Part shown: in pieces, positions 1 through 15,877 of the stretch
Layout: each line of letters starts with the position of its first letter
Position numbering within the stretch: position 1 is the first letter of the stretch
Assembly (NCBI GenBank): GCA_937868095.1
Contig: CALMLO010000032.1
Span: 1 to 64,000 of the forward strand
DNA: 64,000 nucleotides
Origin: an uncultured Phycisphaerales bacterium
GTDB taxonomy: Bacteria; Planctomycetota; Phycisphaerae; Sedimentisphaerales; Anaerohalosphaeraceae
Direction: 5' to 3'
Notes under the pieces: model-generated
What the model was told of the DNA's origin: nothing
What the model saw: only the letters and a program-made list of their open reading frames with translations
Databases searched by the model: none
Translations under genes and position numbers: made by a program

Positions 1-58
1 GTTCCCGCACCCCCGCCCCAAAGTAGAGAGCCGATCACTCAACGGAGGAACCAGACCA

Positions 59-709
59 ATGCAGGCAGCCGCCCACAACGGCAAATACGGCATTGTCCGT
101 CAGGCCGGCATGGAGCTGGTCAAAATCCATCACGACCTCGAAAACGAAAAGCAGCCCCAGCCGATGGCTCAAAAATCCGCGCCTCCATTAGATTATCAGC
201 AGTTCCCTTCAAAGCCCCTCTATTTCCCCCATTGTTTCCGGCTTTTCCCCTCCACTTCCTCTCCATTGCCCCCTCTCAGCCATTCCCGCCTGGCCCCCCA
301 ATCCGCCTCTCCATTGAATTACCAACCCCTGCCCCCAAATCCCCTCAACCCTTCCCCTCTGGCTCAAGAATCCCCGTCTCCATTGAATTATCACCAATTG
401 CTCCTCAATCCTTTCCAACTGGTTCAAAAATCTGCATCTCAATTGAATTCTCAGCAATTTCCCCCAAACCCCCTCAGCAGCCCTTTTCAACTGGCTCAAA
501 AATGCGCGCCGACGCCTCCGCAGGTCCAAAATCCGGCTTTAAAATGCGCACGGCCGTTTTTAAATGGCTTTAAAATGCGCGCCGCCTGCGCGCCGCGGTG
601 CGCAAATTTCCCCAAAAACCCCATTTCCAGCCCAAAAACCCACAAAACAGCAATTTTTGACAACACCCCCCCTCGATGGAGAACAAAAACATGGGCTCGA
701 ACTTTTTAA
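59..709 (+). CDS. Hypothetical proline-rich ORF running into a repeat element
   Basis: The frame is open from the left window edge to the stop at 709. An ATG at 59 has a good GGAGGA-type ribosome binding site about 9 bases upstream, so either a start here or a gene entering from the left is possible. The first 33 or so residues (MQAAAHNGKYGIVRQAG...) have ordinary coding character and GC-rich third positions. From about residue 50 onward the protein is translated from the pyrimidine-rich repeat and becomes a string of Pro/Leu/Asn/Ser-rich units of 20-24 residues. It ends convergently, one base before the stop of the GH76 gene. I recognise no domain. The repeat may have been inserted into, and so extended, the 3' end of a real gene; the repeat part may not be a meaningful protein. 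Confidence 0.3.
   Translation: MQAAAHNGKYGIVRQAGMELVKIHHDLENEKQPQPMAQKSAPPLDYQQFPSKPLYFPHCFRLFPSTSSPLPPLSHSRLAPQSASPLNYQPLPPNPLNPSPLAQESPSPLNYHQLLLNPFQLVQKSASQLNSQQFPPNPLSSPFQLAQKCAPTPPQVQNPALKCARPFLNGFKMRAACAPRCANFPKNPISSPKTHKTAIFDNTPPRWRTKTWARTF
211..672 (+). repeat. Long inverted repeat, left copy
   Basis: Pyrimidine-rich on the plus strand. It matches the reverse complement of 4481-4949. The part from about 491 to 672 is nearly identical between copies (about six mismatches by hand alignment) and carries three AAAATGCGC motifs plus a GCGC-rich block. The part before it consists of degenerate tandem units of 60-72 bp, each opening with CTGGCTCAA or a variant and containing CTCCATTGAATTA or a variant. 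It abuts the 3' end of the GH76 gene. Confidence 0.85.
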
Positions 710-710
710 C

Positions 711-3700
711 CTACCCCTCCAGCCATTCCCTGGCCAGAACACTCAAATCGTCGAGATTGACTTGGCAGTCGCAGGTAAGGTCGCCCTCGCAGGTCCGGCT
801 GTCCAGCCATGTTTCCCCAAAAATAGCCAAATCCTCAAGGTCAACAATGCCATCCTTCGTAAAATCACTGATTAAGGCGTGCCGGCGATACAGAGAAAAA
901 ATATCCTCATCACTCAGACTGCGGTCGTAAATGCGTACCTCGTCCAGATATCCCTCGAAGAAACCCGTGGTTGCGGCGGCGGCATTCTTAAAAGCGCCGA
1001 TCATCACGTTCTGCCCCGCTGCCGTATTGACAGTTTGTTCATTGCTCGAAAGGGCCGCTTGCAAAATGCCGTCAACATACAGCCGAATCTCACTGATATC
1101 CGGGCTTCCATCATTGGCGAAAACCGCCGCCGCATGGTGCCACCGGCCGTCATTAACAGTCGAGGTCGATGTTGTCCGAACGTACCCGCCCCAGACACCA
1201 ACGCTGACGGTTCCGTCAGCTTCTACACGGAAAAACCACTTTTGCCCGGAATTTTCGCTCCCCCAGCTGAGGATGCATACCTGCCGGGCCGCAGTGGTTT
1301 TGACCCAGGCGGTACAAGTACGGCTGGCAGGTCCAAGAACGCCTTTGTACCCGGCAACCTCCACATAGTCATCAACCCCATCAAAAAACAAACCGCCGCA
1401 TTGTTTGCCGGCAGTCCGCGCTGCAAAGTCCATATTAACCAGCACGCCGTTACGGCCGTTTCCAGAGGCATCAGCAGTCGTTGTTCCGGCGGCCTCATTA
1501 AACGACCAGTAAGCCGTCGGGCTGTCCACACCGCGGCCGTCAGCCACAGACCGTCCCGTCAAACCTCGTGCGTAAAGGCGGGCGATTTCAGCATTGGACA
1601 AGGGGCGGCTCCAAAGAGCCAAATCGTCCATGCTGCCGCGAAAATAAGCATCCCCCGACCAGTTGCTTTTGCCGATGTAATTTCGAGTACGGTTTACAAT
1701 GGGCGGCACGGCTGTCTTGCCGGCAGCAATCTCAGTTCCATTCTTGAACAGTTTTACATAACCGGAAGCATCCAGAACGGCGGTAAGCATTTGCCACTGA
1801 TTCAGCGCAATGGTCCCAGAAGCCGTCGCTTTCCCACCGCTGACCGAGCCGTTGTATGCTTCGAAGGATAAGGTGTTTGATGTGTCTTGCCGTGCAAAGA
1901 CAATATTGTTGCTGGCTGAACCGCAGCCCAAATCCAGAAAACGAGCCCAAAAGCCCGCCGCCGTGGGATACACCCAGACGTTGACGGTCATGCCGCCGGT
2001 AAAGTCGGCAAAGCCCTCCGGCAGCCGCACATAATCATCTACACCGTCAAAGCTCAGGGCATCCGCCATCAGTCCGGCAGTACTCACAGGGCCAACCAGC
2101 AACGCATGGTTCTGTGAGGGAGATGAATCCAGCAGAGTACTTCCGCTGATGAACGCGGAGTCCATCGGGTAATGAACAAACAGCCCCTGCGTTGGATAAG
2201 GGGCCGTAGTAAATGTCCAAAGACGACCAGGGGCAATATCCTGTTCGGCTGTTTCTTCATCCACCCGCCAATAATAGGCAGTGTCCTGCACGAGCGAGGG
2301 TCTGAAGAGCGTGCTGGTCTGGCGGCCTTTGTATTCCGGCGAAGCGGGTGCGGCATTCAGGACCGCGATTTGCTCCGTTCCCAGATAAAGAAGATGAGCA
2401 GCAGCCAGAGAGCCGGCCGTCCATTCAAGACTAATCACATCAGTAGTCCCCATGGTTTGGGTCGGCGGAGCAGGGTTTTCCGCCTGACCGCCCGTTCTGT
2501 ACAGCAGCTGCACTTCCTCAGGGGTAAGGGCATAATTACAGATTCTCACATCATCCAAGCGGCCTTCAAAATAGGCATCCGCCGACCAGTTGCTTCGACC
2601 TATGTAGTTGTTCACCCGCTGGATGTTGGAGGGCACAGCAGTAGTGCCGGATGCAATCTGCACACCGTCTTTGTAGAGAAGAACATTGCCGGAAGCATCC
2701 AAGGTAGCGGTGAACATTTGCCACTGGTGAAGTACAATCGCACCAGTTGCACGCACCTGGCCGCCGCTGGCGGTTCCGTCATATCCCTCAAAGAACAGGT
2801 CGTTGGAATTGCCATATCGGCCAAAAACAATATTGTTATTGTACTGGCCATTGCCAAAATCGAGGAAACGGGCCCAATTTTTGACCGCCGTAGGATAAGC
2901 CCAGACAGAGACAGTCATGCCCCCCCTGAAATTGGCAAATCCATCAGGCAAGTCGATATAATCATCAACACCATCGAACAGCAGTGCCCCATTCCATGGA
3001 CCTGCTGCGGCATTCTGCTCAAATGCAAAGGAATCTCCGCAAAGCGTGCCATGACAGCCGAAACCGCTGGAGTCAGCGGCGAGCGTCCCGCTGGTTTCAT
3101 CCAGCATCCACCGGCCTATGAGTCTTTCGGCGAACCACGTATGGGGGGTTGTGCCGCCGGGAGTGGAAGCCATTCTCCAATAGGCCAGTGCAACCGAAGC
3201 ATTGTCAATCATGTCGGCGGAACTGATGCGGCTGGTATCATTCCACACCGCCGGATACAATCCATTGGAAGGGTCTATGCAATTGACATACAGAAACTCC
3301 AGATAGCCGGCGGCCGTATCGAGCCAGCGGGAATTGCCGTCCGATTCGTACAAATCCGCATAGGCATTGGTCATATCATGGCCGCCCCATTTACCGTGCT
3401 GGGTGAGGGCCTGTGTTGTTCGGTTGATAAAGACATGTTCCATCGCGGCGGCCATACGTTCCGCCTCGGCAAGATAAGTTTCGCTGCCCGTGATCTGGTA
3501 AAGACGGACGGCGGCTTGGGTCATTACCGCCGTCTGATAGCCAAGGGCCCCCTGGTTGGTTTCATGGAAAAGGCCGGTGTCATACCGAAGGTTGGAGTTC
3601 ATAATCCAGGAATACAACCTCTGCCCATCCGTCTTGTAGTGCTCGATTGCGGTTTTCTGATACAGAATCAGGTTGGCCAGAATTGTCGGGGCTGTGGAGC

Positions 3701-4253
3701 ACACACTGGCTCCGCCGGTATCTGATTCATGCCAGCGAATCCCGCCGTTAGGGGAATCGGCGGGGTCATTTTCACCGCTCATACAGAAAACGACAGTCTC
3801 CTGTGCCCATCCGAGATACTTGGAGTTTCCAGTCAGTTCGTACAGGTCCAGCAAAGCCAGTGCAAGCCAGGCATTATCATCATAGTAGCGGTCACCACAG
3901 CCGCCGTAGGAGGAATTAAATCCGCTGGTTTGATTCTGCGTGCACCAGTAGTGCAGACGCAATTGCTCCACCAGCTGTTCGGCCCTCTGGAGATAGGCAG
4001 AATCAACCTTTGCAGCAGCAGCGAGGGCACGCAGTATAACGCCTTGACCCCACACATAATCAGGCCAGGTTGCGGTCAGGGAATTGCGGTAAAGGCCATC
4101 TCCCCGGCCATACCGGTTTTGAATTTGAGTAAGAATTTCCTGCCCCCACCGCTGGAATGTCGGACCAGTGATTCTATCGGCCCAAGTGTGCTGGGCAGCG
4201 AAAAATGACAAAAAAATCGATACAAAGAGGGATGCACGTGCGGTTTGATTCAT
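711..4253 (-). CDS. Secreted GH76-like glycoside hydrolase with LamG and dockerin domains
   Basis: Large secreted enzyme of 1180 residues with a signal peptide at about 1-25 (ends near HTWA-D). Residues about 27-365 look like a GH76 endo-alpha-1,6-mannanase catalytic domain, an (alpha/alpha)6 barrel, with the paired aspartates in YYDDNAWLALALLDL and a GGIRWHES segment. Three LamG/concanavalin-like domains follow (about 370-580, 690-895 and 905-1128), each with an FDGVDDY motif. An Fn3-like segment with YYWRVDE lies between the first two. The last 50 residues are a dockerin-like pair of Ca-binding loops (DFTKDGIVDLEDL and DLTCDCQVNLDDL). The expected role is extracellular attack on mannose-containing glycan, with LamG modules aiding binding and the dockerin anchoring or docking. 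AGGTGTGA precedes the ATG. The gene is flanked by inverted repeats. Exact glycan specificity is inference. Confidence 0.88.
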   Translation of the reverse strand: MNQTARASLFVSIFLSFFAAQHTWADRITGPTFQRWGQEILTQIQNRYGRGDGLYRNSLTATWPDYVWGQGVILRALAAAAKVDSAYLQRAEQLVEQLRLHYWCTQNQTSGFNSSYGGCGDRYYDDNAWLALALLDLYELTGNSKYLGWAQETVVFCMSGENDPADSPNGGIRWHESDTGGASVCSTAPTILANLILYQKTAIEHYKTDGQRLYSWIMNSNLRYDTGLFHETNQGALGYQTAVMTQAAVRLYQITGSETYLAEAERMAAAMEHVFINRTTQALTQHGKWGGHDMTNAYADLYESDGNSRWLDTAAGYLEFLYVNCIDPSNGLYPAVWNDTSRISSADMIDNASVALAYWRMASTPGGTTPHTWFAERLIGRWMLDETSGTLAADSSGFGCHGTLCGDSFAFEQNAAAGPWNGALLFDGVDDYIDLPDGFANFRGGMTVSVWAYPTAVKNWARFLDFGNGQYNNNIVFGRYGNSNDLFFEGYDGTASGGQVRATGAIVLHQWQMFTATLDASGNVLLYKDGVQIASGTTAVPSNIQRVNNYIGRSNWSADAYFEGRLDDVRICNYALTPEEVQLLYRTGGQAENPAPPTQTMGTTDVISLEWTAGSLAAAHLLYLGTEQIAVLNAAPASPEYKGRQTSTLFRPSLVQDTAYYWRVDEETAEQDIAPGRLWTFTTAPYPTQGLFVHYPMDSAFISGSTLLDSSPSQNHALLVGPVSTAGLMADALSFDGVDDYVRLPEGFADFTGGMTVNVWVYPTAAGFWARFLDLGCGSASNNIVFARQDTSNTLSFEAYNGSVSGGKATASGTIALNQWQMLTAVLDASGYVKLFKNGTEIAAGKTAVPPIVNRTRNYIGKSNWSGDAYFRGSMDDLALWSRPLSNAEIARLYARGLTGRSVADGRGVDSPTAYWSFNEAAGTTTADASGNGRNGVLVNMDFAARTAGKQCGGLFFDGVDDYVEVAGYKGVLGPASRTCTAWVKTTAARQVCILSWGSENSGQKWFFRVEADGTVSVGVWGGYVRTTSTSTVNDGRWHHAAAVFANDGSPDISEIRLYVDGILQAALSSNEQTVNTAAGQNVMIGAFKNAAAATTGFFEGYLDEVRIYDRSLSDEDIFSLYRRHALISDFTKDGIVDLEDLAIFGETWLDSRTCEGDLTCDCQVNLDDLSVLAREWLEG

Positions 4254-4480
4254 TCACACCTCGATCTTTACAAAATACATCTTTTTCGTTCAGATCAAAC
4301 AATTTGAGTCAGACAAACCAATGGTCCCCATCTGGATGGGGTTCATACCCCCAATAAAGAGCTAAAAATTTCACATAGGCCAAACTGTTCCCCACACACA
4401 TTTATTTTACAAAAGCCCCTTCCCCTTCGTCAAGAAATAACCGGCGGGCGGTCTTCGGAAGCGGGGAGTTGGGGGGGGCG

Positions 4481-4949
4481 GGGGGTGTTGTCAAAAATTG
4501 CTGTTTTGTTGGTTTTTGGGCTGAAAATGGGGTTTTTGGGGAAATTTGCGCACCGCGGCGCGCAGGCGGCGCGCATTTTAAAGCCACCTGAAAACGGCCG
4601 CGCGCATTTTAAAGCCGGATTTTGGACCTGCGGAGGCGTCGGCGCGCATTTTTGAGCCAGACAAAAAGGGCTGCTGAGGGGGTTTGGGGGGAATTGCTGA
4701 GAATTCAATGGAGACGGGGATTCTTGAGCCAGAGGGGAAGGGTTGAGGGGTTGTGGAGGCAGGGGTTGGTAATTCAATGGAGACGGGGATCCTTGAGCCA
4801 GAGGGAAAGGGTTGAGGGGTTGCGGGGGCAGGTGCGGAGAATTTAATTGAGAGGGGGATTTCTGAGTCAGAGAGGAAGGGCTGAGAGGGGGCAATGGAGA
4901 GGAAGTGGAGGGGGAAAGCCGGAAACGATGGGGGAAATGGAGGGAGTTT
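4481..4949 (-). repeat. Long inverted repeat, right copy
   Basis: Reverse-complement counterpart of 211-672, lying about 230 bp upstream of the GH76 start. On the minus strand it has three tandem units of 69, 69 and 72 bp and then the conserved GCGC-rich tail. On the plus strand it is strongly purine/G-rich. The unit lengths in both copies are multiples of three and all units stay in one reading frame. Confidence 0.85.
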
Positions 4950-5777
4950 GAGGCGGATAAGCGCTGTCGGGTTTTGCTCCTTCTGCTGCCCATTTTAATT
5001 CCTTTAGTTCCTATACCTTGCGGCTCCTTTGGGCCGGATGTCTGCTCCTTCGTCAGTCAAGCGGGTATTATACCATAAATGTTTTTGAAATCAAGGAAAT
5101 GTTTGGTAATTATCAAACTTTTTTGGCAGGCAGGCGGAGCCGCGGTTTTGGAAAGAATTAAGAGTAAAAAGGGGAATAGTCGAGGAAGCGGGTCTGGTTT
5201 TGGGTTTTGGATGAAAAGTAAGTAAAAAATGGGGGAAATGGCTTGCCGGAGGGGGTTGAGGTTGGGTATAATAGCGGCGAAACGGCTGCTTTGAAAAGAC
5301 ATCAAAAAATAGAAGGGAACAAATAAGATATTGTTACGGCAAAACGCCTATGGCAACATTCGAAGACTCATTACATTTGGCGAAAGAAAAAATGCTGGAC
5401 AATACCTTACAGCCGACTATCAAACAGAATACTATTGTTTGTCAGATGAAGCAGCGGCGATTCCAGATGACTCCGGTAGTAATTTCCGGGCGGTTTTTTG
5501 CATCCAGTCGGCATCGCCGAAGGGGCGGCCGGTGGAGCGGTCACCTGCGGCCCGAAAGGAAAGAATGCGTACGGCTGCCACAGAAAAAACAGTTTGCCAG
5601 CAGTTGAGCCGAAATGGCGGGAAACGACCGATTGACCCCTGTCAGCAAGTTCTGTAAAAATGTTCGTAAAGAAGCTTGGTTATACAGATACTCGCTACTT
5701 TTGCAGGCCGACCGTGCCAATGGTTGATCTTGGATAGGTAATGGAACGGGCGAGTGAGAGCACGTAATGGGATTTTC
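4950..5777. other. Gene-poor stretch, no gene recognised
   Basis: About 830 bp between the right repeat and the Mrr-N-like gene. Small open frames exist on the plus strand (for example from ATG 5350 and a TTG at 5331, about 85-108 codons), but neither translation looks like a protein. Frames on the minus strand at 5057-5305 are low-complexity. No tRNA, terminator or known RNA was recognised. A decayed gene cannot be excluded for 5331-5757. Confidence 0.5.
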
Positions 5778-6374
5778 TCAGGGATTGGCGCTGTCTTTTT
5801 TGCTTTGCAGAAATTGCCTTCCTTTTTCTGAAATTTCCCAAATGCCGCGAGGGCTGTCGTTTTTCAGGAGCCCTTCGCTCATCAGGCGATTTCGTGCCCA
5901 TTGGGCTGCGTTGCGCCAGCGAAGATTCCTTGGATCAGAGGTCAGCGGTTCAAAATCATACGGCTTGAGTATTTCTTGCATTTTTCTGCCGACGCAATCC
6001 AGTACCTCTGCTACTGGGCCGGAGCCGCCCATTTCGGTTAGGACCTCTAAAATCGGTATGCGATATGCTTCTTCGGGTGTGCGCATTCCCCTCTGGAGAC
6101 GGCCGTGATTTCGTCGCTGGATGCGGGCTGCCTCCATTTCCTCCTGATCCATTTCGATCTGGGTTAAGGATTCCCATTCCTTTTTCAGGGAAGAAATTTT
6201 GTCGCGGAAGGCGGTCAGTCTGCCAGCGTGTTCGAGGGTCTCTCGGGCGCGGTCATAATCGCGATTTTCAAAGGCCTTCGCGCCCACTGTATTGATAAAA
6301 TCAATCTCCGCTTCCATTTCTTCCAGCAACATCTCGAAGGCCGCACTGACATTGGTGGGATTGTTTTCGAGCAT
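5778..6374 (-). CDS. Mrr-N-like winged-helix DNA-binding protein
   Basis: 198 residues. The N-terminal half (about 1-90) is an acidic, coiled-coil-like helical region. Residues about 105-192 resemble the Mrr N-terminal winged-helix domain, with an IPILEVLTEMGGSG start, a WRNAAQWARNRLMSEGLL helix and a GIWEISEKGRQFL wing. The nuclease domain of Mrr restriction enzymes is absent, so this is probably a stand-alone DNA-binding or regulatory protein. A strong AGGAGG sits upstream of the ATG. Neighbours (WYL regulator, aminotransferase) do not reveal a pathway. Domain assignment is from pattern recognition; the biological role is unknown. Confidence 0.7.
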   Translation of the reverse strand: MLENNPTNVSAAFEMLLEEMEAEIDFINTVGAKAFENRDYDRARETLEHAGRLTAFRDKISSLKKEWESLTQIEMDQEEMEAARIQRRNHGRLQRGMRTPEEAYRIPILEVLTEMGGSGPVAEVLDCVGRKMQEILKPYDFEPLTSDPRNLRWRNAAQWARNRLMSEGLLKNDSPRGIWEISEKGRQFLQSKKDSANP

Positions 6375-6809
6375 AAAAACCTCCTTTCATCCTATTATTT
6401 TAAGGGAAATCATACACAATTTGGGTGATTTGGCAAGGGTTTTTGGGGGGTTTTGTTGGGGTAATGACGGTGCGGGGGTTTCGGCACCATGCCGGAATGC
6501 CCCCGCTGTGCAGAGAATCGGGGGCTTTTGGCTAAAAGCCCTTCTGCCGCATTTCTCCCCTCGATTGCCGGCTTTTCTCTGCACCCGTCTATTGCCCTCC
6601 TCCGCCTTGCCTTTTGTTTTTTCTGGCGGCGAACGAGTTTGGCCGCCGTACAAAAATAGTGTACGAGGGTGGTCTGACAGGGTTGGTCGTATCCTTAGGA
6701 CGGCGGAGGAGGGGCGGGGTCTGACAGGAGCGGTCAGGCGTACTATGTTTTGTATATCGGGCGGGGCGGGGAACCGAAGAATTGAGGGGGAGGAGGGTGA
6801 AAAAATTTT
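6375..6809. other. Intergenic region, no gene recognised
   Basis: 435 bp between the start of the Mrr-N-like gene and the 3' end of the WYL regulator gene. It is G-rich on the plus strand and has a short direct repeat (GTCTGACAGG, near 6672 and 6719). It should hold the promoter of the 5778-6374 gene. No convincing ORF, tRNA or terminator was seen. Confidence 0.5.
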
Positions 6810-7820
6810 TCAGTTTTTTTGTTTTTCTTGCCGGCGTTCGTACCTGTGTGTCATCTGTTTGATTTCATTTTTGACCTGGCGGATGAGGGAGGGCGGGGAA
6901 AGGACTTTGGCACGGCTGCCGAAGCTGAGGATCCAGCGGAGCAGTTCATCAGTGGGTGTTATTTCAAACTGGACGATGAGGGTATCGCCCGTGTCGCGGA
7001 TAATGGTTTGGGATGGATGTCGTCGTGTTTCGCGGACGTTGGCGGCGGCCCAGCCGTCGAGTTGGATTCGGATTTGGCGGGGGTTGGGGGGCTTTGAGAA
7101 GATGCCGAAACTGTCCTGTGTGTGACGAACGAGGGAGAAATCGGGGGGCCGCTGGAAAGTGTGTCCGGTTGGTTCTGCGGATAGGATTCTGCTGATTTTG
7201 AGGGTACGGATTTCTTCGTATCGTTCCATCCAGCCGATGCAGTATAAATCGCCGTCGAAAAAGACCATGCCGTAGGGGTGATAGAGGGTTTCGTAAGGTT
7301 CGCTGGAGCGGGTGGAGCGATAGCGAAGGCGGATGATGTGTGAATCCTGAACGGCGCGGGCGAGGAGGCGTATGATTTTGTCGTGGGCGGCGTAGGTGTT
7401 CAGTGCGGTGGTTTTGACGAGGAGGTGCTGTTCGAGGGTGGCGAAATAATCGAGGGTGCGTGGGGAGAGCATAGCTTTGATTTTGTCCATGAGGGTTGCT
7501 ATGCCTTCGCCGAAGAGAGTGCCGGAGAGGGGGGACAGGAGTTTCTGGCTGAGGTAGAGACTGATTAGTTCGGTGGGGGAGAAGAGCATTTGGCCGGTTT
7601 CGATGAAGCGGCTGTGGAGTTTCCAGAAACGTTTGCCAAAGAGGCGTTCTTCGAAGGTGATGGGGAAGCCGAGTTCACAAAGGATTTTGAGGTCGCGGAG
7701 TACCTGACGTTTGCTGCACTCGAGGCGGTGTGCCAGTTCGTCGGCGGAGATGCCGAAATGGAAGGACTGAAGGATTTTGAGGAGGTTCCACTGGCGTATC
7801 AGTGACTGGCCGCGAGACAT
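6810..7820 (-). CDS. WYL-domain transcriptional regulator (YafY/DeoR type)
   Basis: 336 residues. An N-terminal DeoR/HTH_11-type helix-turn-helix lies at about 1-65 (SADELAHRLECSKRQVLRDL). A WYL sensor domain covers about 140-215, with the family-like HPYGMVFFDGDLYCIGWME. A WCX-like C-terminal region follows at about 240-325, ending in a Lys/Arg-rich tail. Proteins of this build bind DNA and sense a ligand, often a nucleotide or nucleic acid, through WYL. No defence genes lie next to it, so a general regulatory role is as likely as a defence role. The ATG at 7820 begins MSRGQSLIRQW. It is transcribed away from the Mrr-N gene region and towards it at its 3' end. Confidence 0.88.
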   Translation of the reverse strand: MSRGQSLIRQWNLLKILQSFHFGISADELAHRLECSKRQVLRDLKILCELGFPITFEERLFGKRFWKLHSRFIETGQMLFSPTELISLYLSQKLLSPLSGTLFGEGIATLMDKIKAMLSPRTLDYFATLEQHLLVKTTALNTYAAHDKIIRLLARAVQDSHIIRLRYRSTRSSEPYETLYHPYGMVFFDGDLYCIGWMERYEEIRTLKISRILSAEPTGHTFQRPPDFSLVRHTQDSFGIFSKPPNPRQIRIQLDGWAAANVRETRRHPSQTIIRDTGDTLIVQFEITPTDELLRWILSFGSRAKVLSPPSLIRQVKNEIKQMTHRYERRQEKQKN

Positions 7821-7940
7821 GAGTGTTCCTTTCCGTCTGAATCCTTCTTTTTCAGTGTGTTTTCCAGCGGAGCCGTGTAAAAAGCCGGCCGGGTTAAGGC
7901 AAGTTTTTTTGCGATATGCGGCGGGCGGGGGGGTGAATGT

Positions 7941-8798
7941 TCAGGGGGTGGAGAGTCGGGCGAGTACGTACTCCTGAAACTTTTTGATGAGGGCAAGTGT
8001 GCAGGGGCCTGGGCGGCCGTTTCCGACGGGTCTGCCGTCAAACTGAATGATGGGCTGGATGTCTTTGGTGGTCAGGGCCATGAAGAGTTCATCCATCTGG
8101 GCGGCCTGCTGGGGGGTGAGGGCCTTTTCTACGGGGGTCAGGCCTGCATCGCGTGCGATTTGCAGGACGACGGAGCGTGTGATGGATGGGAGGATTTCCG
8201 GGCCGAGGGGGTGTGTGTGGAGGGTTTTTTCGCGGCCGTTGACGGCGAAGAAGGTCGAGCCGGCTCCTTCGGTGATGAGGTTTTTGTCGTTGACGAGGAT
8301 GGCTTCTTCGCAGCCTTTGCGGTCGGCTTCAATCCGTGCGAGGACGTTGGGCAGCAGGTTGAGGGATTTGATGTCGCAGCGTTTCCATCGCAAGTCGGGG
8401 TGAGTGCAGACGCGGACGCCGGCCAGTTTTTTCTGGGGGTTGTCCCGCAATTCCTGGACGGTGAGGAAGAACGAGGGTTTGAGGTTGGGGGCGGGGAGAT
8501 GGTCGCGGAGCTGGCAGCCGCGGGTGAGGTGGAAATAGATTTTGGCGTTTTGAAGGCCGGCCTGGCGGAAGGCGTCGAGGACGCGATTGCGTATTTGGGT
8601 GATATTGAGCGGGGAAAGTCGGATTTCGGCGGCACTTTTTTCGAATCTGGCTAAATGTTCTTCAAAGGCAAAGAGCCGTCCCTGATAACTTCGAAGCACT
8701 TCATAGACGCCGTCTCCGAAGAAAAGTCCGCGGTCGAGTTTGTCCAGCGGCACTTCGGTCAAAGGCAGCAGTTTTTCATTGATGACAGCAAGTTCCAT
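7941..8798 (-). CDS. PLP-dependent class IV aminotransferase, D-amino acid type
   Basis: 285 residues, the normal length for fold-type IV aminotransferases (D-alanine aminotransferase and branched-chain aminotransferase). N-terminal DRGLFFGDGVYEVLRSYQG is the family start. The PLP-binding lysine is in RCDIKSLNLLPNVLA, and the phosphate-site glutamate and glycines are in ITEGAGSTFFAV. These features fit D-amino-acid transaminase (Dat) or an IlvE-like enzyme. Dat would interconvert D-alanine and D-glutamate for peptidoglycan. CGGAG precedes the ATG. It sits alone upstream of the WYL gene with a 120-bp gap. The family is certain; D versus L specificity is not. Confidence 0.85.
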   Translation of the reverse strand: MELAVINEKLLPLTEVPLDKLDRGLFFGDGVYEVLRSYQGRLFAFEEHLARFEKSAAEIRLSPLNITQIRNRVLDAFRQAGLQNAKIYFHLTRGCQLRDHLPAPNLKPSFFLTVQELRDNPQKKLAGVRVCTHPDLRWKRCDIKSLNLLPNVLARIEADRKGCEEAILVNDKNLITEGAGSTFFAVNGREKTLHTHPLGPEILPSITRSVVLQIARDAGLTPVEKALTPQQAAQMDELFMALTTKDIQPIIQFDGRPVGNGRPGPCTLALIKKFQEYVLARLSTP

Positions 8799-8964
8799 TT
8801 TATTCTCCGGTTATAAACGTTGTTTTCCTTATCATAAGAATATCGTCAAAAAAAGCAATGCGAGATAAAAGCGAGGGAAAGAGAAGAGGGGACTGGGTGC
8901 TGGAGTGTTTCTAAGTGGTTAATTTATAAGGGGTTGTAATTTTGTTAAATCCGGCAAAAAAAAC

Positions 8965-8993
8965 TTTACAAATGGAGATGCAAGCCCTACAAT
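8965..8993 (+). promoter_or_regulatory. Promoter of rplU
   Basis: TTTACA (-35) and TACAAT (-10) separated by 17 bp, about 60 bp upstream of the rplU start. A sigma70-type match by eye. Confidence 0.6.
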
Positions 8994-9054
8994 ACTCGCC
9001 TCTTGAAGTGAATCCATGGAATTTGTTGAAATCTTAGCAGTGAGAAGGAAGACG

Positions 9055-9384
9055 ATGTACGCGATTATTGAACAAGGCGGCAAGCAGTATAAAGTGAGCG
9101 AAGGAGACGTTCTTCGCATCGAACTGACGGATGCGGCTCCTGATGCGCAGGAAATTGTGCTGGATAAGGTGCTGATGGTTCGTGATGAGAACTCGGTTCG
9201 ATTGGGCAACCCTTATTTGGAGGGTGCAAAAGTGACGGCTCGTTTCGATGGGACGGCGGAGGACTCTGTGGTTAAGGGGCCGAAACTGTACCCGATGTAT
9301 TTCCGGCGGCGGAAGAGTTCGAGCAAAAAGATTGGGCATCGACAGAAATATCTGCAAGTTATGATTGAGCGGATCGAAGGATAG
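9055..9384 (+). CDS. rplU: 50S ribosomal protein L21
   Basis: 109 residues starting MYAIIEQGGKQYKVSEGD, the classic L21 N terminus. The C-terminal KKIGHRQKYLQVMIERI is also typical. L21 binds 23S rRNA in the large subunit. The start is set at 9055, preceded by GAAGGAAGAC; an upstream in-frame ATG at 9016 would add 13 residues not seen in the family. It is followed at once by a terminator, so it is probably a one-gene unit. In most bacteria rplU is followed by rpmA (L27); here rpmA is about 48 kb away. Confidence 0.97.
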   Translation: MYAIIEQGGKQYKVSEGDVLRIELTDAAPDAQEIVLDKVLMVRDENSVRLGNPYLEGAKVTARFDGTAEDSVVKGPKLYPMYFRRRKSSSKKIGHRQKYLQVMIERIEG

Positions 9385-9417
9385 CATCAGACCTGGTGAA
9401 ATGAGGTCGAGGATTCC

Positions 9418-9450
9418 AACCTGCCTGCCGAAAGGGGGGCAGGTTTTTTT
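9418..9450 (+). terminator. Rho-independent terminator after rplU
   Basis: Arms AACCTGCC and GGCAGGTT around a 12-base loop, followed by a T tract. Confidence 0.85.
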
Positions 9451-9507
9451 ATAGGCCGAGAGAAAAAGCGGAGAAAAAGAGGGGCGGGAAATTGCGAAAG
9501 GGAGTGT

Positions 9508-10092
9508 ATGCGTGATTTCTGGATGGTGTTTGTTCCGTTATTTGTAGCGGTGGATGCGATAGGGACTTTGCCGATATTTCTGGGTCTTGTGGAGGGGGTT
9601 CCGAAGGATGTTCGCCGTCGTGTTGTTGAGCAGTCTTTTGCGACGGCTTTGTTTGTTGCGGTTGGTTTTATCTTTCTGGGCAAGAGCATCTTTCATTTTC
9701 TTGGGATTACGATATTTGATTTTATGGTTGCCGGCGGCGTTCTTCTGTTCATTATTGCGACGCTGGATATGACGACGGGGACGAAGTTTGCACGGCGTGT
9801 GGAAACGCTGGGTGCGGTTCCTTTGGGGGTTCCGCTGATTGTTGGGCCTGCGGTTCTGACGACGAGTCTGATGCTGGTGGATGTGCATGGTTTGACGGCG
9901 ACGCTGGCGGCGGTTGTGTTGAATCTGCTGCTGGCGGTTGGGATTCTGCTGTCGGCTGATTTCTGGAATCGGATTTTGGGGCAAACGGGGTCTCAGGCGA
10001 TATCGAAGGTGGCGAGTTTGATTCTGGCGGCTATTGGGGTGATGATGATTCGGCGCGGGATTTTCGGGATTATTGGAGGGGCTTCTTTGTAG
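9508..10092 (+). CDS. MarC/UPF0056 family inner-membrane protein
   Basis: 194 residues with about six hydrophobic segments, the usual MarC family size and topology. Family-like signatures are AIGTLPIFLGLVEG near the N terminus, FLGITIFDFMVAGG in the middle and PLIVGPAVLTT after the central loop. MarC proteins are integral membrane proteins with no firmly established function; the old link to multiple antibiotic resistance is not supported. GGGAGTGT precedes the ATG. It is flanked by the rplU terminator and a convergent E2 gene, so context does not help. Confidence 0.88.
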   Translation: MRDFWMVFVPLFVAVDAIGTLPIFLGLVEGVPKDVRRRVVEQSFATALFVAVGFIFLGKSIFHFLGITIFDFMVAGGVLLFIIATLDMTTGTKFARRVETLGAVPLGVPLIVGPAVLTTSLMLVDVHGLTATLAAVVLNLLLAVGILLSADFWNRILGQTGSQAISKVASLILAAIGVMMIRRGIFGIIGGASL

Positions 10093-10109
10093 GGACGGTG
10101 CGGCGGGGA

Positions 10110-11258
10110 TTAGGGGGTGTCTATCAGTTCGCTGGGGTGCTCGAGGAGTTTCTTGATGTGGTCGAGGAATTGGGCGGCCTCGGCGCCGTTGACAATACGG
10201 TGATCGACGGAAAGGGTGAGGGTCATTTTTTTCCGGATTTGGATTTGGGGGCCGTCGGGGACGCATTGTTCGCGGATGCAGCCGACACCGAGAATGGATG
10301 CCTGGCCTGGGATGACAATGGGGATGAAGGAGTCGATGCCGAATTTTCCGAGATTGGTGATGGTCATGCAGCCGCCTTCTAAATCGGCGGGGCCGAGGGC
10401 GTTTCGGGCGGCTCTGTCGAGCAAGTCCTGGACGGCGGCGGAAATCTGAAAAATCGTAAGGGTATCCACCTCGCGCAGGACGGGTGCGACAAGTCCGTGC
10501 CGGGCGGCCAGGGCCAACCCGATGTCGATTTGTTCGGCCAGTTCAATGGCGTCTGTTGTGAGTTGTCCGGTCAAAATGGGATAACGCCGCAGGGAGAGGG
10601 CGGCGGCCTTGAGAAGAAAGTCGTTGTAGGAGATGGTCCGGCTTCCCTGGCGGCTGAGGTTCTGACGTACCTGGGCCAGTTCGGTGACGTCGGCCTGGAG
10701 AATCAGATAAAAGCATGGGATTTGCCGTTTGGATGTGAGCATCTTCTGGGCGATGATTTTCTGCCAGCGGGTCAGGGGGATGCGTGCGCCGGGTTTGAAT
10801 TGGGAGGCAGGGACGGGTTGGGACGCTTGAAAGGCATCGAGTGCTTCCTGGGAGGTGGCGGGCATGGGATGGCTTTTCGAGCGGGTTTGGGTCGAGGGGG
10901 TGGTGCTGTCGGCGAGTGGGAGCGTATGGGCGGCCGGGGCGGTCAGTTCGAGGATGCTTTCGCGGGCGGCCTGAACCTGCTGTCTGAGCGTTTCGATGCG
11001 TTCGGGGTCGAGGGGCTGTCCGTCATCGAGGAGCACAAAGAGGGGGGTTTCGACGGGGAGTACATCTCCCTGTTCGGTCAGAATGGCGCCGATGATGCCG
11101 GCAGCCGGGGATTCGATCTGCATGGTCGCCTTGTCTGTTTCGAGGTCGGCCAGCACCTGTCCTTTGCGTACTTTTTGACCGACTTGTACATGGAGGGCCA
11201 CAATGACGGCTTGTTCCATGGTTCGTCCGAGTCTGGGCAGTATAATTTCTATCGCCAT
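10110..11258 (-). CDS. Lipoyl-E2 2-oxoacid dehydrogenase acyltransferase, orphan
   Basis: 382 residues from the ATG at 11258 (MAIEIILPRLGRTMEQ). A lipoyl domain spans about 1-78 with the lipoylated lysine in LETDKATM. A linker rich in Ser/Thr/Pro follows, then a CoA-dependent acyltransferase catalytic domain (about 165-380). Two things are odd. I see no clear peripheral subunit-binding domain in the linker. The catalytic HxxxDG motif reads HRIVNG, with Asn for Asp. No E1 or E3 gene is nearby. It follows cheB by 93 bp on the same strand but is unlikely to be a chemotaxis gene. It could serve a pyruvate, acetoin or branched-chain complex, or be a stand-alone acyltransferase. Confidence 0.85.
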   Translation of the reverse strand: MAIEIILPRLGRTMEQAVIVALHVQVGQKVRKGQVLADLETDKATMQIESPAAGIIGAILTEQGDVLPVETPLFVLLDDGQPLDPERIETLRQQVQAARESILELTAPAAHTLPLADSTTPSTQTRSKSHPMPATSQEALDAFQASQPVPASQFKPGARIPLTRWQKIIAQKMLTSKRQIPCFYLILQADVTELAQVRQNLSRQGSRTISYNDFLLKAAALSLRRYPILTGQLTTDAIELAEQIDIGLALAARHGLVAPVLREVDTLTIFQISAAVQDLLDRAARNALGPADLEGGCMTITNLGKFGIDSFIPIVIPGQASILGVGCIREQCVPDGPQIQIRKKMTLTLSVDHRIVNGAEAAQFLDHIKKLLEHPSELIDTP

Positions 11259-11351
11259 CGGCAGATTCCCGCGTATCGATTGCTTTTGCTGACTAATTCG
11301 GGATTTGTATATACCATTGCCCGAAAGGGTCTGCAAGTATATTTTGCGCGG

Positions 11352-12401
11352 TCAGCTGCGTGCGAACTGGATGAGTGCGGCGGAGATTTTTTCGAGGGGG
11401 ACAATCGCTTCCGCGGCGTTGAGCCGGATGGCTTCCCTGGGCATTCCGAAGACGACGCAGGTGGCTTCATCCTGTGCGATGGTGTGTGCGCCGGCTTCTT
11501 TGAGGGCCAGGAGTCCTTTGGCGCCGTCGTTGCCCATGCCGGTGAGAATGGCTCCGACGGCATTGGCGCCGGCGTATTTGGCGACGGAGTTGAAGAGGAC
11601 TTCGACGCTGGGTTTCTGGTGGCAGACGGCGGGGCCGTCTTTGATTGCGACGTAATAACTGGCTCCGGAGCGCTGGAGGACCATGTGATAGCCGCCGGGT
11701 GCGATGAGGACCCGTCCGGGGATGATGTGGTCGCCGTCGGCGGCTTCTTTGACCTGTACGGCACAGGTCTCATTGAGCCGTTCGGCAAAGGAGCGGGTGA
11801 ATTGTGCCGGCATGTGCTGGACGACGAGGGTTCCCGGTGAATCGGCCGGCAGAGAGGAGAGGACACAGGTAAGGGCCTGCACGCCTCCGGTGGATGCTCC
11901 GATGGCGATGATTTTGTGGGTTGTTTCGAGCAGATGGGCGGATTCGGCGGGTGCCGCCGGTGCTGCCGGTGCGCTGACGGGTTTTGGGAAAGACCCTTTG
12001 GGAATGGCCAGAATGGTCTGGCAGAGCTGTTTGCAGGCATCTCCGACGCTGTAGGAGGGGCCTGGTTTGGCCAGCACTTCTACGGCGCCTGAGGCAAGGG
12101 CTTCGACGGCGGTTTTGCTTCCCTGGGGGGTCAGGGAGCTGAAGATGATGACGGGCATGGGATGATATTTCATCAGTTTTTTCAGGAATGTGACGCCGTC
12201 CATTCGGGGCATTTCGACATCGAGAATCAGCACATCGGGATTAAGAGTTACGATTTTGTCGCGTGCGATGTAGGGGTCTGGTGCTGTGGCGATGACCTCG
12301 ATGGAGGGGTGGGCATCGAGCTGTTTGCTGAGAATCTTGCGAACGATGGCGGAGTCGTCCACGATGAGCACTTTGGTTGTTTTCTGTTCGGCTGCGAGCA
12401 T
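11352..12401 (-). CDS. cheB: Chemotaxis protein-glutamate methylesterase/deamidase CheB
   Basis: 349 residues. The receiver domain (about 8-125) has the acidic pair in VLIVDDSA and the phospho-acceptor D61 in LILDVEMP. The methylesterase domain (about 162-347) has the triad S170 (GASTGG), H196 (VVQHMP) and D292 (GMGNDGAKG). CheB-P removes methyl groups from receptors, giving adaptation opposite to CheR. The start at 12401 has AAGGAGA about seven bases upstream; the longer open frame upstream overlaps cheD and is not family-like. It is the last chemotaxis gene of the operon, 17 bp after cheD. Confidence 0.95.
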   Translation of the reverse strand: MLAAEQKTTKVLIVDDSAIVRKILSKQLDAHPSIEVIATAPDPYIARDKIVTLNPDVLILDVEMPRMDGVTFLKKLMKYHPMPVIIFSSLTPQGSKTAVEALASGAVEVLAKPGPSYSVGDACKQLCQTILAIPKGSFPKPVSAPAAPAAPAESAHLLETTHKIIAIGASTGGVQALTCVLSSLPADSPGTLVVQHMPAQFTRSFAERLNETCAVQVKEAADGDHIIPGRVLIAPGGYHMVLQRSGASYYVAIKDGPAVCHQKPSVEVLFNSVAKYAGANAVGAILTGMGNDGAKGLLALKEAGAHTIAQDEATCVVFGMPREAIRLNAAEAIVPLEKISAALIQFARS

Positions 12402-12417
12402 AGCAGTCTCCTTTGTC

Positions 12418-12921
12418 TCAGAGGACCTTTTCCACTCCGCCGGTTTTGACGATGGCGGTTCCGTCCCCCAAATAGAGGTAAAAGTTTCGCGGCTGGTCAC
12501 CGCCGACATCGTGGCCTTTGAGGAGAAGTCCGTGCTTCCAGAGGACTTTTCGGAGGGCGAGGAAATTGCGTTTTCCGATGTCAAATCCCTGGGGTCCGGT
12601 TTTCATGGCGGCTCCGCCGGCGACTTTGACTATCATTCTGTATTTGTCTGCTCCGTATCGGATTAGATTGGCTAATAGTGTCTCCATTCCGGTATCGCAG
12701 AACATAAAGGGTTCTGTCTGTGCGCGGATGGGGTCCATGGAAGATTCCGGCAGCTGATAATGAATCATGCCTCCGATGGTGACCGCCGGGTCATAGACGG
12801 CAACGGCCAGGCAGGAGCCGAGAGAATAGGTGACCAGAACAGAATCCGGGTCGGAAGAAATTTTCGCGTCGGAGACCTGCACAACAACGTGATTTTTTTT
12901 CAGGGAGGTCGGCATTCTCAT
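12418..12921 (-). CDS. cheD: Chemoreceptor glutamine deamidase CheD
   Basis: 167 residues. The catalytic Cys37 lies in YSLGSCLAV and His54 in GGMIHYQLP, the papain-like pair used for receptor deamidation. Further family signatures are KVAGGAAM and the DIGKRN segment. CheD deamidates receptor glutamines and, in many bacteria, partners with CheC to tune adaptation, which fits the CheC/CheX-type genes in this operon. The start codon overlaps the cheR stop (ATGA), indicating translational coupling. Confidence 0.95.
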   Translation of the reverse strand: MRMPTSLKKNHVVVQVSDAKISSDPDSVLVTYSLGSCLAVAVYDPAVTIGGMIHYQLPESSMDPIRAQTEPFMFCDTGMETLLANLIRYGADKYRMIVKVAGGAAMKTGPQGFDIGKRNFLALRKVLWKHGLLLKGHDVGGDQPRNFYLYLGDGTAIVKTGGVEKVL

Positions 12922-13772
12922 TTCCTGTAGATTGTCGGCTGGATGTATCGGAACGAATGGCGGATTCCTGTGAGCGATTCGGAATGGCCCGTAAAGAAAA
13001 GGCCTCCGTTGTCGAGTACGTCGTGGAATCTCTGGACAAGTTTTTCCTGAGTGGGCTTGTCGAAATAAATCATCACATTTCGGCAGAAGATAAAATCGAA
13101 TGGGCCTCGGAAGGGCCAAGGGTCCATGAGATTGAGGTATTTGAAAATAAGGATGCTGCGAAGGGCCGGGCTGACCTCGTAGAGGAGAGGAGTGGATTTG
13201 TCCTTTTTGGGTTTGAGATAGCGGCTCTTGAGTTCGGCGGAGAGGTTGGCGACCCGCTGCGGTTCATAAAGTCCTTCCTGGGCAATTCGGAGGATTCGTG
13301 TGGAGATATCGGATGCGAGGATTCGGATATCCCAGGATTGGGCAAGCGGGACGGCCTCGAGGAGGGTGATGGCGATGGAGTAGGGCTCTTCACCGGACGA
13401 ACAGCCGGCACTCCAGGCGCGGATGCGGAGTTGGCCGGTTTTCTGTTTTTTCTGAATTAAAGCAGGGAGGAATTGGCGTCGAAGGTATTCGAAATGTTTG
13501 GGTTCGCGGAAGAAACTGGTGAGGTTGGTGCTGATTTGGTCAATCATTTCGTAGAAGGTGGTCTGGGTGGGGTCGTCGAGAACGAAGTCGATGTACTGGT
13601 CATAGGTTTTGAAACGATATTTTCGAAGCATTTTGGCCAGGCGGGCGCGGACGAGTTCTTTTTTGCCCTCGTGAAGATTGATGCCGCAGTGCTCATAGAC
13701 CAGCCGGCAGATGCGCACGAACTGTTCATCGGTGAGGACGGGCTGCTCAATCTGGAGGGTTGGGAATTGCAT
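12918..13772 (-). CDS. cheR: Chemotaxis protein methyltransferase CheR
   Basis: 284 residues. The N-terminal helical CheR-N domain (about 12-75) is followed by the SAM-binding methyltransferase domain (about 80-280), with SFFREPKHFEYL, AWSAGCSSGEEPYSIA and FIFCRNVMIYFDKPTQ motifs. It methylates receptor glutamates using S-adenosylmethionine. TAGGAACGACT precedes the ATG. There are 8 bp between the cheA stop and this start, and the 3' end overlaps cheD, so the adaptation enzymes R, D and B form a tightly coupled set. Another enzyme of the same family is not in the window. Confidence 0.96.
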   Translation of the reverse strand: MQFPTLQIEQPVLTDEQFVRICRLVYEHCGINLHEGKKELVRARLAKMLRKYRFKTYDQYIDFVLDDPTQTTFYEMIDQISTNLTSFFREPKHFEYLRRQFLPALIQKKQKTGQLRIRAWSAGCSSGEEPYSIAITLLEAVPLAQSWDIRILASDISTRILRIAQEGLYEPQRVANLSAELKSRYLKPKKDKSTPLLYEVSPALRSILIFKYLNLMDPWPFRGPFDFIFCRNVMIYFDKPTQEKLVQRFHDVLDNGGLFFTGHSESLTGIRHSFRYIQPTIYRK

Positions 13773-13780
13773 AGTCGTTC

Positions 13781-15877
13781 CTATAGATAAGCGGCGGGGT
13801 CCTGTGCCAGTTCTATCAGGCCGGGTACATCGAGAATCAGACTGATGCGTCCGTCGCCCATGATGGCGCCGCCGGAGACCCCTTTGATTTTGCCTAATCC
13901 TCGAAGGGATTTGATGACGACCTGCTGCTGTCCGATGAGGTCATCGACCTGGAGGCAGCAGCGTTTGCTTCCTTCGCCGACAACGACGAGAAGGGCCTGG
14001 TCGGGCTCCTGGACGGCTCCGGCGATGCCGAACAGTTTGTAAAGCGGAATCAAAGGATGAAGTTGTCCGCGGATTATCACGACCTGGGAGTGATTCTGAA
14101 TGGTGGAAATCTGGTCTGGTGCGGGGCGCAGACTTTGGATGACGGCGTTGATGGGGATGATATATCGCTGGGAGCCGATGGTGATAATCTGTCCGTCGAT
14201 GATGGCGAGTGTCAAGGGCAGCCGGATTGAAATCTGGGTGCCCTTGTCGGGGGCGGAGCGGATTTCGATTTTTCCATTGAGGGATTCGATGTTTTTCTTG
14301 ACGACGTCCATTCCGACGCCCCTGCCGGAGATGTCAGTGACCTGGTCGGCGGTGGAGAAGCCCGGACGGAAAATCAATCCGAAGATTTCCTCTTCGCTGA
14401 GTTCCTGGTGTTCGGAAACAAGTCCTTTTTCGACGGCTTTTTTACGGATTTTTTCGCGGTTGAGGCCGCGGCCGTCGTCTTCGATTTCGATGACGATGCT
14501 GCCGGCCTGATGATAGGCGGCCAGTCGAATGCGTCCCTGGGGATTTTTCCCTTTCTGCGTCCGCTCCTGGGGGCTTTCAATTCCGTGGTCGATTGAGTTG
14601 CGGAGCATGTGGATAAGGGGGTCGGTGATTTTGTCCACGATGGTGCGGTCTAATTCCGTTTCTTCTCCGGCGGTCTGGAAGATGACGGGTTTGGCGGCTT
14701 TTTGAGATAAATCGCGGACCAGACGGGCCATTTTCTGGAACGCTCCCTGGATAGGAATCATCCGCATGGCCATGGAGAGTTCCTGGAGTTCGCGGACGAT
14801 TTTGGACTGGCCGGCGACTTTGCGGAAGAGGTCGCTGTCGGTGTGGCAGGTTTTGCTTACTTCTTCGGAAATCATCAGTTGGGCGACGGCCAGTTCGCCG
14901 GTCATATTGATCAAATCGTCGAGCCGTTTGGTGCTTACTTTGATGGTCTGGCGTGCGGCTCCGGCGGCGTCGGCGGAAACAGAGGCGGCCGGGGCGGTTC
15001 GGGCTGATGATTCGGGCTGGAGAATCGGTTCCAGTTTGACATCCTGCCGGACATCGGGCAGGGGTTCTTGTGTTTCAGGCGGGGTCTTGCCTTCGGCGCA
15101 GTCCTGGATGCGGCGGATGAGGTCTGTCAGGTCCGTCGGCGGAAGAACGGGCGTATTCTGGGTCAGTCCGGTCTGGAGGTCTTTGAGCATTGTTTTGAGC
15201 ATATCAATGGCTGCAAAGGCCAAATTGCCGGCAAGGCCGACCATGGTGAGGGTTCCTTTTCTGGCACGATCGAGCAGATTTTCTGCGACGTGGGCCAGGC
15301 GGTTTACGGCTGTGAGGTTCAGGAAGCCCGCCATTCCCTTGATGGTGTGGAATCCGCGGAAGATTTGGTTGAGGGTTTCTGTGCTGGTTGGGTCGCTTTC
15401 GAGCGTCAGCAGTGCGCTTTCCGCCGATTCGATATGTTCGCGGGATTCATTGATGAAGTCCTGAACGAGGGGTGCATCTTCCTGGACGATGGTGATGGGC
15501 TGAAACTCGTCGGCCGGAGCGGGGGTCGGCGTTGAGGCCGGGGCTGGGGCCGCTGTCGGTGTCGGGGCAGATTGGAAAAGGGACTGAGAAAGAGTTTGGA
15601 GGCGGCTGACGGCCTGGGTGAGTTCTTCGAGGATGCGGTCGGAGTTTTCTGTGTCGGCCTGGAGGAGTTTTTCAATCTGTTCGGCGCCGAGATGGGCGAG
15701 GGTTTCGCCCTGCAGGCGGCCGGCTTCTTCACAGCCGCTGAGCTCTTTGATGGCGGACTCGATTTGTTTGAAGACCTGGGCAATTTCCTGAAGGTCTTTG
15801 CTGTCCTGGGGGTCCAGGAGGGGGATTTTGCCGGCGGCCTGTTCAATCAGTTCTGTAAGATTTAAATTTTTATCCAT
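13781..15877 (-). CDS. cheA: Chemotaxis sensor histidine kinase CheA
   Basis: 698 residues. The HPt domain with the phospho-His177 (FRGFHTIKGMAGFL) lies at about 134-240, not at the N terminus. It is preceded by about 100 residues of acidic helical sequence and a Pro/Ala linker, an uncommon extension. A P3 dimerisation domain follows (STKRLDDLINMTGELAVAQ), then HATPase (LRNSIDHGIE, EDDGRGLN, GRGVGMDVVK) and a C-terminal CheW-like P5 domain. I do not see a clear separate P2 CheY-binding domain. The start at 15877 (MDKNLNLTELIEQ) is chosen over a longer frame that overlaps the upstream gene out of family character. Confidence 0.96.
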   Translation of the reverse strand: MDKNLNLTELIEQAAGKIPLLDPQDSKDLQEIAQVFKQIESAIKELSGCEEAGRLQGETLAHLGAEQIEKLLQADTENSDRILEELTQAVSRLQTLSQSLFQSAPTPTAAPAPASTPTPAPADEFQPITIVQEDAPLVQDFINESREHIESAESALLTLESDPTSTETLNQIFRGFHTIKGMAGFLNLTAVNRLAHVAENLLDRARKGTLTMVGLAGNLAFAAIDMLKTMLKDLQTGLTQNTPVLPPTDLTDLIRRIQDCAEGKTPPETQEPLPDVRQDVKLEPILQPESSARTAPAASVSADAAGAARQTIKVSTKRLDDLINMTGELAVAQLMISEEVSKTCHTDSDLFRKVAGQSKIVRELQELSMAMRMIPIQGAFQKMARLVRDLSQKAAKPVIFQTAGEETELDRTIVDKITDPLIHMLRNSIDHGIESPQERTQKGKNPQGRIRLAAYHQAGSIVIEIEDDGRGLNREKIRKKAVEKGLVSEHQELSEEEIFGLIFRPGFSTADQVTDISGRGVGMDVVKKNIESLNGKIEIRSAPDKGTQISIRLPLTLAIIDGQIITIGSQRYIIPINAVIQSLRPAPDQISTIQNHSQVVIIRGQLHPLIPLYKLFGIAGAVQEPDQALLVVVGEGSKRCCLQVDDLIGQQQVVIKSLRGLGKIKGVSGGAIMGDGRISLILDVPGLIELAQDPAAYL

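What the first reader, a model, noticed from the sequence alone, without database searches (positions are those of the whole stretch)
211..4949. GH76/LamG/dockerin gene bracketed by 460-bp inverted repeats
Copies at 211-672 (+) and 4481-4949 (-) match across their whole length, and the last about 180 bp differ at only about six positions. They could allow inversion of the enclosed 3.8 kb by recombination, or mark a mobile cassette for surface-enzyme genes. I recognise no transposase and no known element.
Basis: seen in the sequence. Interest (0 to 1): 0.6.

Follow-up and report, generated by a model that had tools for sequence, protein, structure and literature searches.

The report
Scattered mosaic repeats bordering defence genes
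The two inverted copies around this sugar-enzyme gene belong to a repeat family scattered over the whole genome, often beside anti-virus and toxin genes, so the enzyme gene probably just sits between two copies and is not a flippable or mobile cassette.

Summary
The inverted repeats are real: 209-671(+) and 4480-4951(-), 87% identical overall, 6 differences in the last 180 bp. They are not private to this gene. The core gave 23 matches in this genome; all modules together make 44 segments on 26 contigs, in both orientations. Copy 2 really runs to 5327. Neither copy is the other's closest relative. GH76 relatives in two congeners lack the repeat and have different neighbours. A dedicated inversion or GH76 cassette is therefore not supported. 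The family looks like a bidirectional promoter/leader segment: the nearest 5'-side ORF points away in 20 of 23 copies, the nearest 3'-side ORF is co-directional in 14 of 17. Segments sit beside restriction-modification, Gabija, SIR2-Argonaute, PD-T4-3, AbiD and Rhs-tip genes; 5 of 10 methylase loci lie within 2.5 kb of a segment (5.0% of the genome, P 6e-5). A congener with 24 motif copies shows no such association. Best reading: recombination-shuffled border repeats of accessory DNA.

The parts
1..672 (+). Repeat copy 1, cut at its 5' side by the contig start. Mosaic: 1 to about 215 resembles 'type B' copies (ORF start at 59, end of a terminase-small-like gene), 209-630 resembles copy C65 ('type A').
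   Evidence: 2-371 to C62b 91.7%, 2-220 to C62a 93.6%, 209-630 to C65 98.8%; ORF 59-709
209..671 (+). Position 209 is the mosaic junction, not an element end.
611..639 (+). 3' motif CCCAAAAACCNNNTTTNCAGCCCAAAAAC, copy 1
711..4253 (-). GH76 / three LamG-like stretches / weak dockerin-like C-terminus, 1180 aa; not part of the repeat family
4441..5327 (-). Repeat copy 2, 'type A': 5' module, divergent promoter-like sites, C-rich ORF with 60/69-bp units, 156-nt core, 3' motif, shared tail
4512..4540 (-). 3' motif, copy 2
4430..4993 (-). Leader-like ORF of copy 2 (MGSRRSKTRQ..., 187 aa); no stop codon inside the element, ends in flanking DNA
5067..5094 (-). Promoter-like site TTGATT-16-TATAAT facing the leader ORF and GH76
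   Evidence: consensus match only
5243..5272 (+). Promoter-like site TTGCCG-18-TATAAT facing outward, away from GH76
   Evidence: consensus match only; this region is 86% identical in G005 beside Rhs cores
5325..5470 (+). Fragment homologous to G001 C79 (78%), abutting the element exactly; resembles the 3' end of an IS481-type transposase (family name recalled, no database hit)
   Evidence: no NCBIfam hit
5778..6374 (-). Protein with Mrr N-terminal domain on the 5' side of copy 2
   Evidence: PF14338 E 6.5e-15; no PADLOC hit

Best explanation
The two inverted copies are members of a dispersed, mosaic, multi-module repeat family of this planctomycete genome. A complete unit is a bidirectional upstream segment. 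One end (5' module) carries a promoter-like site facing outward toward accessory DNA such as restriction-modification genes, Rhs tips, other defence genes or IS remnants. The other end carries a promoter-like site and a C-rich stop-less leader ORF of 60/69-bp units, or alternatively a terminase-small-like gene fused in frame to the same units, and ends in a conserved 29-nt motif next to a usually co-directional gene. Copies spread and are reshuffled by homologous recombination or gene conversion together with their accessory neighbours, so they mark borders of variable segments and synteny breaks. GH76 lies between two such borders because both 3' ends happen to face it. Shown: dispersal, mosaicism, modules, orientation bias, association with defence genes in this genome. 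Inferred: recombination as the spreading mechanism and the promoter/leader role.
For: Dispersal: 23 core matches, 10 leader matches, 36 matches to the 5' module and its extension. Sharp alternative 5' edges. Copy 1 is a type B/type A chimera with its junction at 209-221, and C65 is 98.8% identical to it over 422 nt despite a different 5' end. Relatives of one non-repeat ORF (LFFFISVGVC...) lie in two repeat loci, C62 and C32. Orientation: nearest 5'-side ORF outward in 20 of 23 (21 copies of this genome and 2 of G005; P 2e-4), nearest 3'-side ORF co-directional in 14 of 17 (P 0.006). Promoter-like sites 7 against 1.0 +/- 1.0 in shuffles. PADLOC hits beside copies: type I M/S/R, type II, type IIG, GajA/GajB, SIR2-pAgo, PD-T4-3, AbiD. 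PF02384: 3 of 3 genes within 1.3 kb; PF02384 and PF01555 loci together: 5 of 10 within 2.5 kb against 5.0% coverage, P 6e-5. Rhs core ends in the 5' flank at C34, C13, C10 and twice in G005. Synteny break at C36: its two flanking core blocks lie on different contigs in G002-G004.
Against: G001, same genus with 24 motif copies, shows mostly ordinary genes on both sides in the 7 stretches read, and its single PF02384 gene over the cut-off (C201) is on a contig without a listed copy; the defence link is shown for one genome only. Five of 10 methylase loci are not near a segment at 2.5 kb; two of them (C19, C39) look like prophage. At the window the only accessory neighbours are an Mrr_N protein without PADLOC hit and an IS-like remnant. 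In C29 Gabija lies on the 3' side and the outward gene is a glycosidase-like ORF; in C33 hsdM points inward. Position bias could be passive: repeats and defence genes may both collect in variable intergenic DNA. Promoters are consensus matches only, and the orientation test used a mechanical ORF caller with some shadow ORFs. The assembly has 69 contigs and may be chimeric at repeats.
Confidence: 0.6

Rival explanations
1. Invertible segment or mobile GH76 cassette: the two copies are paired ends that recombine to flip or move the enclosed gene.
For: Perfect bracketing geometry; 93% identity over 269 nt would allow RecA recombination.
Against: Copies are not nearest relatives; dozens of other places; GH76 relatives elsewhere without repeats; the C60 pair brackets unrelated genes. 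With 44 segments in 3 Mb one close pair is unremarkable (inference, no pair statistic was run).
Confidence: 0.07
2. Non-autonomous transposon (MITE-like or retro-like) moved in trans, with a fixed 3' end and variable 5' truncation.
For: Many copies share the 3' motif end while 5' edges vary; sharp junctions.
Against: No terminal inverted repeats or target duplications seen by eye at the printed ends; the 3' end also has alternative tails; internal modules are exchanged between subfamilies; no match in plasmids, phages or viral contigs.
Confidence: 0.2
3. A rapidly evolving protein family (terminase-small-like domain plus C-terminal repeats) duplicated over the genome, the repeats being coding sequence under selection.
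For: 15 of 15 copies examined are open in the same frame from start to the motif; unit lengths are multiples of 3; full genes in C41 and C60; a G001 paralogue matches phage terminase small subunits (PHROG E 2.3e-6).
Against: Synonymous share 6 of 24 changes against 28% expected in the 156-nt core; no stop codon inside, 15 different C-termini; the motif lies in another frame in G001 L027; C-rich composition lowers stop frequency.
Confidence: 0.13

Closest known systems
Orphan Rhs / polymorphic-toxin tip cassettes (PMC3482391, seen as search listing and abstract start only)
   Same: Some copies sit directly upstream of detached Rhs core ends and tips, here and in G005; recombination with standalone cassettes is described in that abstract.
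   Different: The repeat is also found with no Rhs nearby (this window, C36, C62a, C33) and carries its own modules on the other side.
Defence islands / integration hotspots (recalled; search listings)
   Same: R-M, Gabija, Argonaute and Abi genes in variable segments.
   Different: Here segments are bordered by a shared multi-module repeat; no common integrase or tRNA site was recognised. One short conserved stretch beside C36 may be a tRNA; not checked.
REP/BIME and RAYT systems (recalled)
   Same: Dispersed intergenic repeats, possibly tied to one gene family.
   Different: Units of about 0.8-1.3 kb, no palindromic fold (z 0.05), no transposase.
MITEs / IS-derived repeats (recalled)
   Same: Multi-copy, no own transposase.
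   Different: No terminal inverted repeats or target duplications recognised; modules are exchanged.

Membership tests
Inverted-repeat-bounded invertible or mobile cassette | The two ends are a matched pair, each other's closest relatives | tested here: not met
   copy 1 closest to C65 (98.8% over 422 nt) and C60; copy 2 core closest to C60_2 (95.8%); between copies 1 and 2 93%
Inverted-repeat-bounded invertible or mobile cassette | Gene travels with the repeats | tested here: not met
   GH76 in G002 and G003 without repeats, different neighbours
Inverted-repeat-bounded invertible or mobile cassette | Both orientations present in a population | not testable with these tools
   no reads available
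MITE / transposable element | Terminal inverted repeats and target-site duplication | tested here: inconclusive
   none seen by eye at the ends printed; no formal search, no clean empty site
MITE / transposable element | Recombinase gene in or next to the copies | tested here: inconclusive
   none in the element ORFs; IS-like remnant at 5325-5470 and an integrase-like ORF at C53 only read by eye
REP/BIME | Conserved palindromic stem | tested here: not met
   z-score 0.05 for one copy; no Rfam match
Orphan Rhs tip cassette | Rhs core end joined to the unit | tested here: inconclusive
   met at C34, C13, C10 and G005 x2, not at the window copies
Border repeat of defence/toxin segments | Enrichment of defence genes beside copies | tested here: met
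   (P 6e-5) in G000; not reproduced in G001

The most novel reading that the evidence does not exclude
A portable docking module for defence and toxin genes: a bidirectional promoter/leader repeat, with a terminase-small-like DNA-binding protein encoded by some copies that may recognise the repeat arrays, which captures, expresses and exchanges R-M, Gabija, Argonaute and Rhs cassettes at dispersed sites, while a C-rich (Rho-type) leader insulates the neighbouring core gene.
Probability: 0.1. Interest if true: 0.75.

Novelty: new variant of a known kind. Interest (0 to 1): 0.45.

Why it matters
How unrelated defence and toxin systems keep landing in the same places is an open question. A repeat family that sits between accessory segments and core genes, with an outward promoter-like site on the accessory side, would be a concrete and testable route (homology plus ready-made expression) that needs no integrase. 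It also warns that inverted repeats around a single gene may only be two members of a genome-wide family.

Tried and rejected
GH76 cassette or inversion: rejected after the genome-wide copy count and the congeners. Protein-level selection on the core: no signal. Structured RNA: fold z 0.05, no Rfam match. Presence on phages, plasmids or viral contigs: none found. Exact core pattern in GTDB contigs: none (the own genome may be left out there). Other genera: the 29-nt motif alone turns up in 8 of the other 57 genomes besides G000 and G001, in mixed contexts; I do not count those as relatives. Terminase-small-like gene: no Pfam or NCBIfam hit for the G000 protein, PHROG hit only for a G001 paralogue. 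PADLOC on all 148 mechanical ORFs >=150 aa within 5 kb of a segment on the contigs that I held (list): 15 scanned singly, 14 with a hit at 1e-15; the other 133 as alignments gave two more type II methylases and several matches that I take as unspecific (helicase, WYL, RT/DnaG-like and others; only 25 of 48 families are shown). Control: 1 of 46 window ORFs. The control is small, so I rest the association on the methylase count. Literature: three searches, listings and abstract starts only, nothing describing this repeat; no paper was opened.

Full report
OBSERVATION. The inverted pair is real: 403-671/4480-4748 (269 nt, 93%) and 209-393/4767-4951 (185 nt, 85%); 20 mismatches in the 269 nt, 6 in the last 180. 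Between the arms lies one long gene, 711-4253(-), with GH76 and three Laminin_G_3 stretches. The window starts at the start of a contig (C32:1-64000), so copy 1 is cut off.

NOT A PRIVATE PAIR. The 269-nt core gives 23 matches in the own genome, some of them secondary or weak; the leader of type A gives 10 and the 5' module with its extension 36. Merged, I count 44 segments on 26 contigs (list), in both orientations, many at contig ends. Copy 1 is closest to C65 (98.8% over 422 nt) and not to copy 2 (86.9% over 472 columns). Copy 2 extends to 5327, a base at which its homology to C14a, C32b, C34, C36, C57 and C62b begins.

ANATOMY. Several of those other copies share still more sequence on the 5' side, with edges about 90, 200 and 418 bp further out. 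After the 5' module come alternative parts. Type A: promoter-like TTGATT-16-TATAAT and the ORF MTKEQ.../MGSRRS...; eight strong leader matches. Type B: a terminase-small-like gene, complete in C41 and C60 with two such domains, shortened elsewhere. Type C: a short piece also found in G005. Types A and B share the 60/69-bp units, the core and the 3' motif. All 15 copies examined are open in one frame through the motif but hold no stop codon of their own and end in 15 different tails. The 156-nt core has no length differences, and synonymous changes are 6 of 24 against 28% expected, so I see no protein-level selection. In G001 the motif is in another frame (L027). RNA folding of copy 2 is unremarkable (z 0.05) and Rfam finds nothing. 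The ORF part is C-rich and G-poor: 74 of 138 windows have strong C over G skew, against 265 of 21308 on the whole minus strand, which includes the element. That composition resembles Rho-loading RNA (from general knowledge, untested).

RELATIVES. The 29-nt motif with up to 3 mismatches occurs 17 times in G000 (reversed-pattern control 5), 24 times in the same-genus G001 (control 0), 0 times in G002-G005, and one to three times in 8 of the other 53 genomes (59 searched). In G001 the 10 copies printed carry different upstream repeats. G005 has two copies of the 5' module, each beside a detached Rhs core. Nothing was found in plasmids, phages or viral contigs. The six named relatives of the GH76 domain are five Planctomycetota/Phycisphaerae records and one Reinekea.

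NEIGHBOURS. The nearest 5'-side ORF points away from the element in 20 of 23 (21 copies of G000, 2 of G005), and the nearest 3'-side ORF is co-directional in 14 of 17 (mechanical ORFs, some probably shadows). Beside copies PADLOC names type I M, S and R (C33), type II REase/MTase (C36), type IIG (C62a, C53), MTase (C14a), REase (C57), AbiD (C14b), GajA/GajB (C29), SIR2-pAgo and an S fragment (C21), and PD-T4-3 (C43). Independent of my choice of neighbours, all three PF02384 genes lie within 1.3 kb of a segment. Of ten PF02384/PF01555 loci, 5 lie within 2.5 kb (coverage 5.0%, P 6e-5) and 6 within 5.5 kb (9.1%, P 8e-5). The radii were set after seeing the distances; at 2.0 kb it is 4 of 10, P 6e-4. 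Rhs core ends adjoin C34, C13 and C10. Against this, G001 shows mostly ordinary genes on both sides in the seven stretches read, and its one PF02384 gene over the cut-off is not on a contig with a listed copy.

REARRANGEMENT. In G002 and G003 the GH76 gene has different neighbours, no repeat, and lies on another contig than the block matching window 6500-14000. At C36 the two core blocks that flank element plus R-M lie on different contigs in G002-G004. Copies thus sit at synteny breaks, as expected if they recombine, though contigs of draft assemblies can also break or misjoin there.

MECHANISM. Most likely (0.6): border repeats reshuffled by homologous recombination, with outward and inward promoter-like sites; GH76 is a short segment between two borders whose 3' ends face it. 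Transposition in trans (0.2), a selected protein family (0.13) and a dedicated inversion/cassette (0.07) are less likely for the reasons given in the rivals.

NOVELTY. Each ingredient is known in kind (dispersed repeats, Rhs cassettes, defence islands). I found no description of this combination in three full-text searches read as listings, which is a thin search. I call it a new variant of a known kind.

Noticed in passing
window 5325-5470: Fragment ending exactly at the element, homologous to G001 C79; both break off at the same AAGATATTGTTA point. Looks like the 3' end of an IS481-type transposase (recalled).
   Followed up: partly
L219:2544-5630 (G000 C21): SIR2-PNTD long prokaryotic Argonaute (PADLOC 1330 bits) directly beside a repeat segment and a type I specificity fragment.
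   Followed up: partly
L218:3-2715 (G000 C29): GajA/GajB (Gabija) pair beside a repeat segment.
   Followed up: partly
L189 6900-9000 (G005 C317): Tandem near-identical Rhs core/tip blocks, each preceded by the 5' module of this repeat.
   Followed up: partly
L098:5587-6161 (G005 C48): Terminase-small-like gene split between two frames, with AQ-GAP repeats whose 3' end resembles the repeat core.
   Followed up: no
G001, 24 places: Congener with the same 3' motif but different upstream repeats (GGACAAAAAACGGACAAAAC...).
   Followed up: partly
L211 (C39) and L212 (C19): ParB-like plus methylase and terminase-like genes: probable prophages.
   Followed up: no
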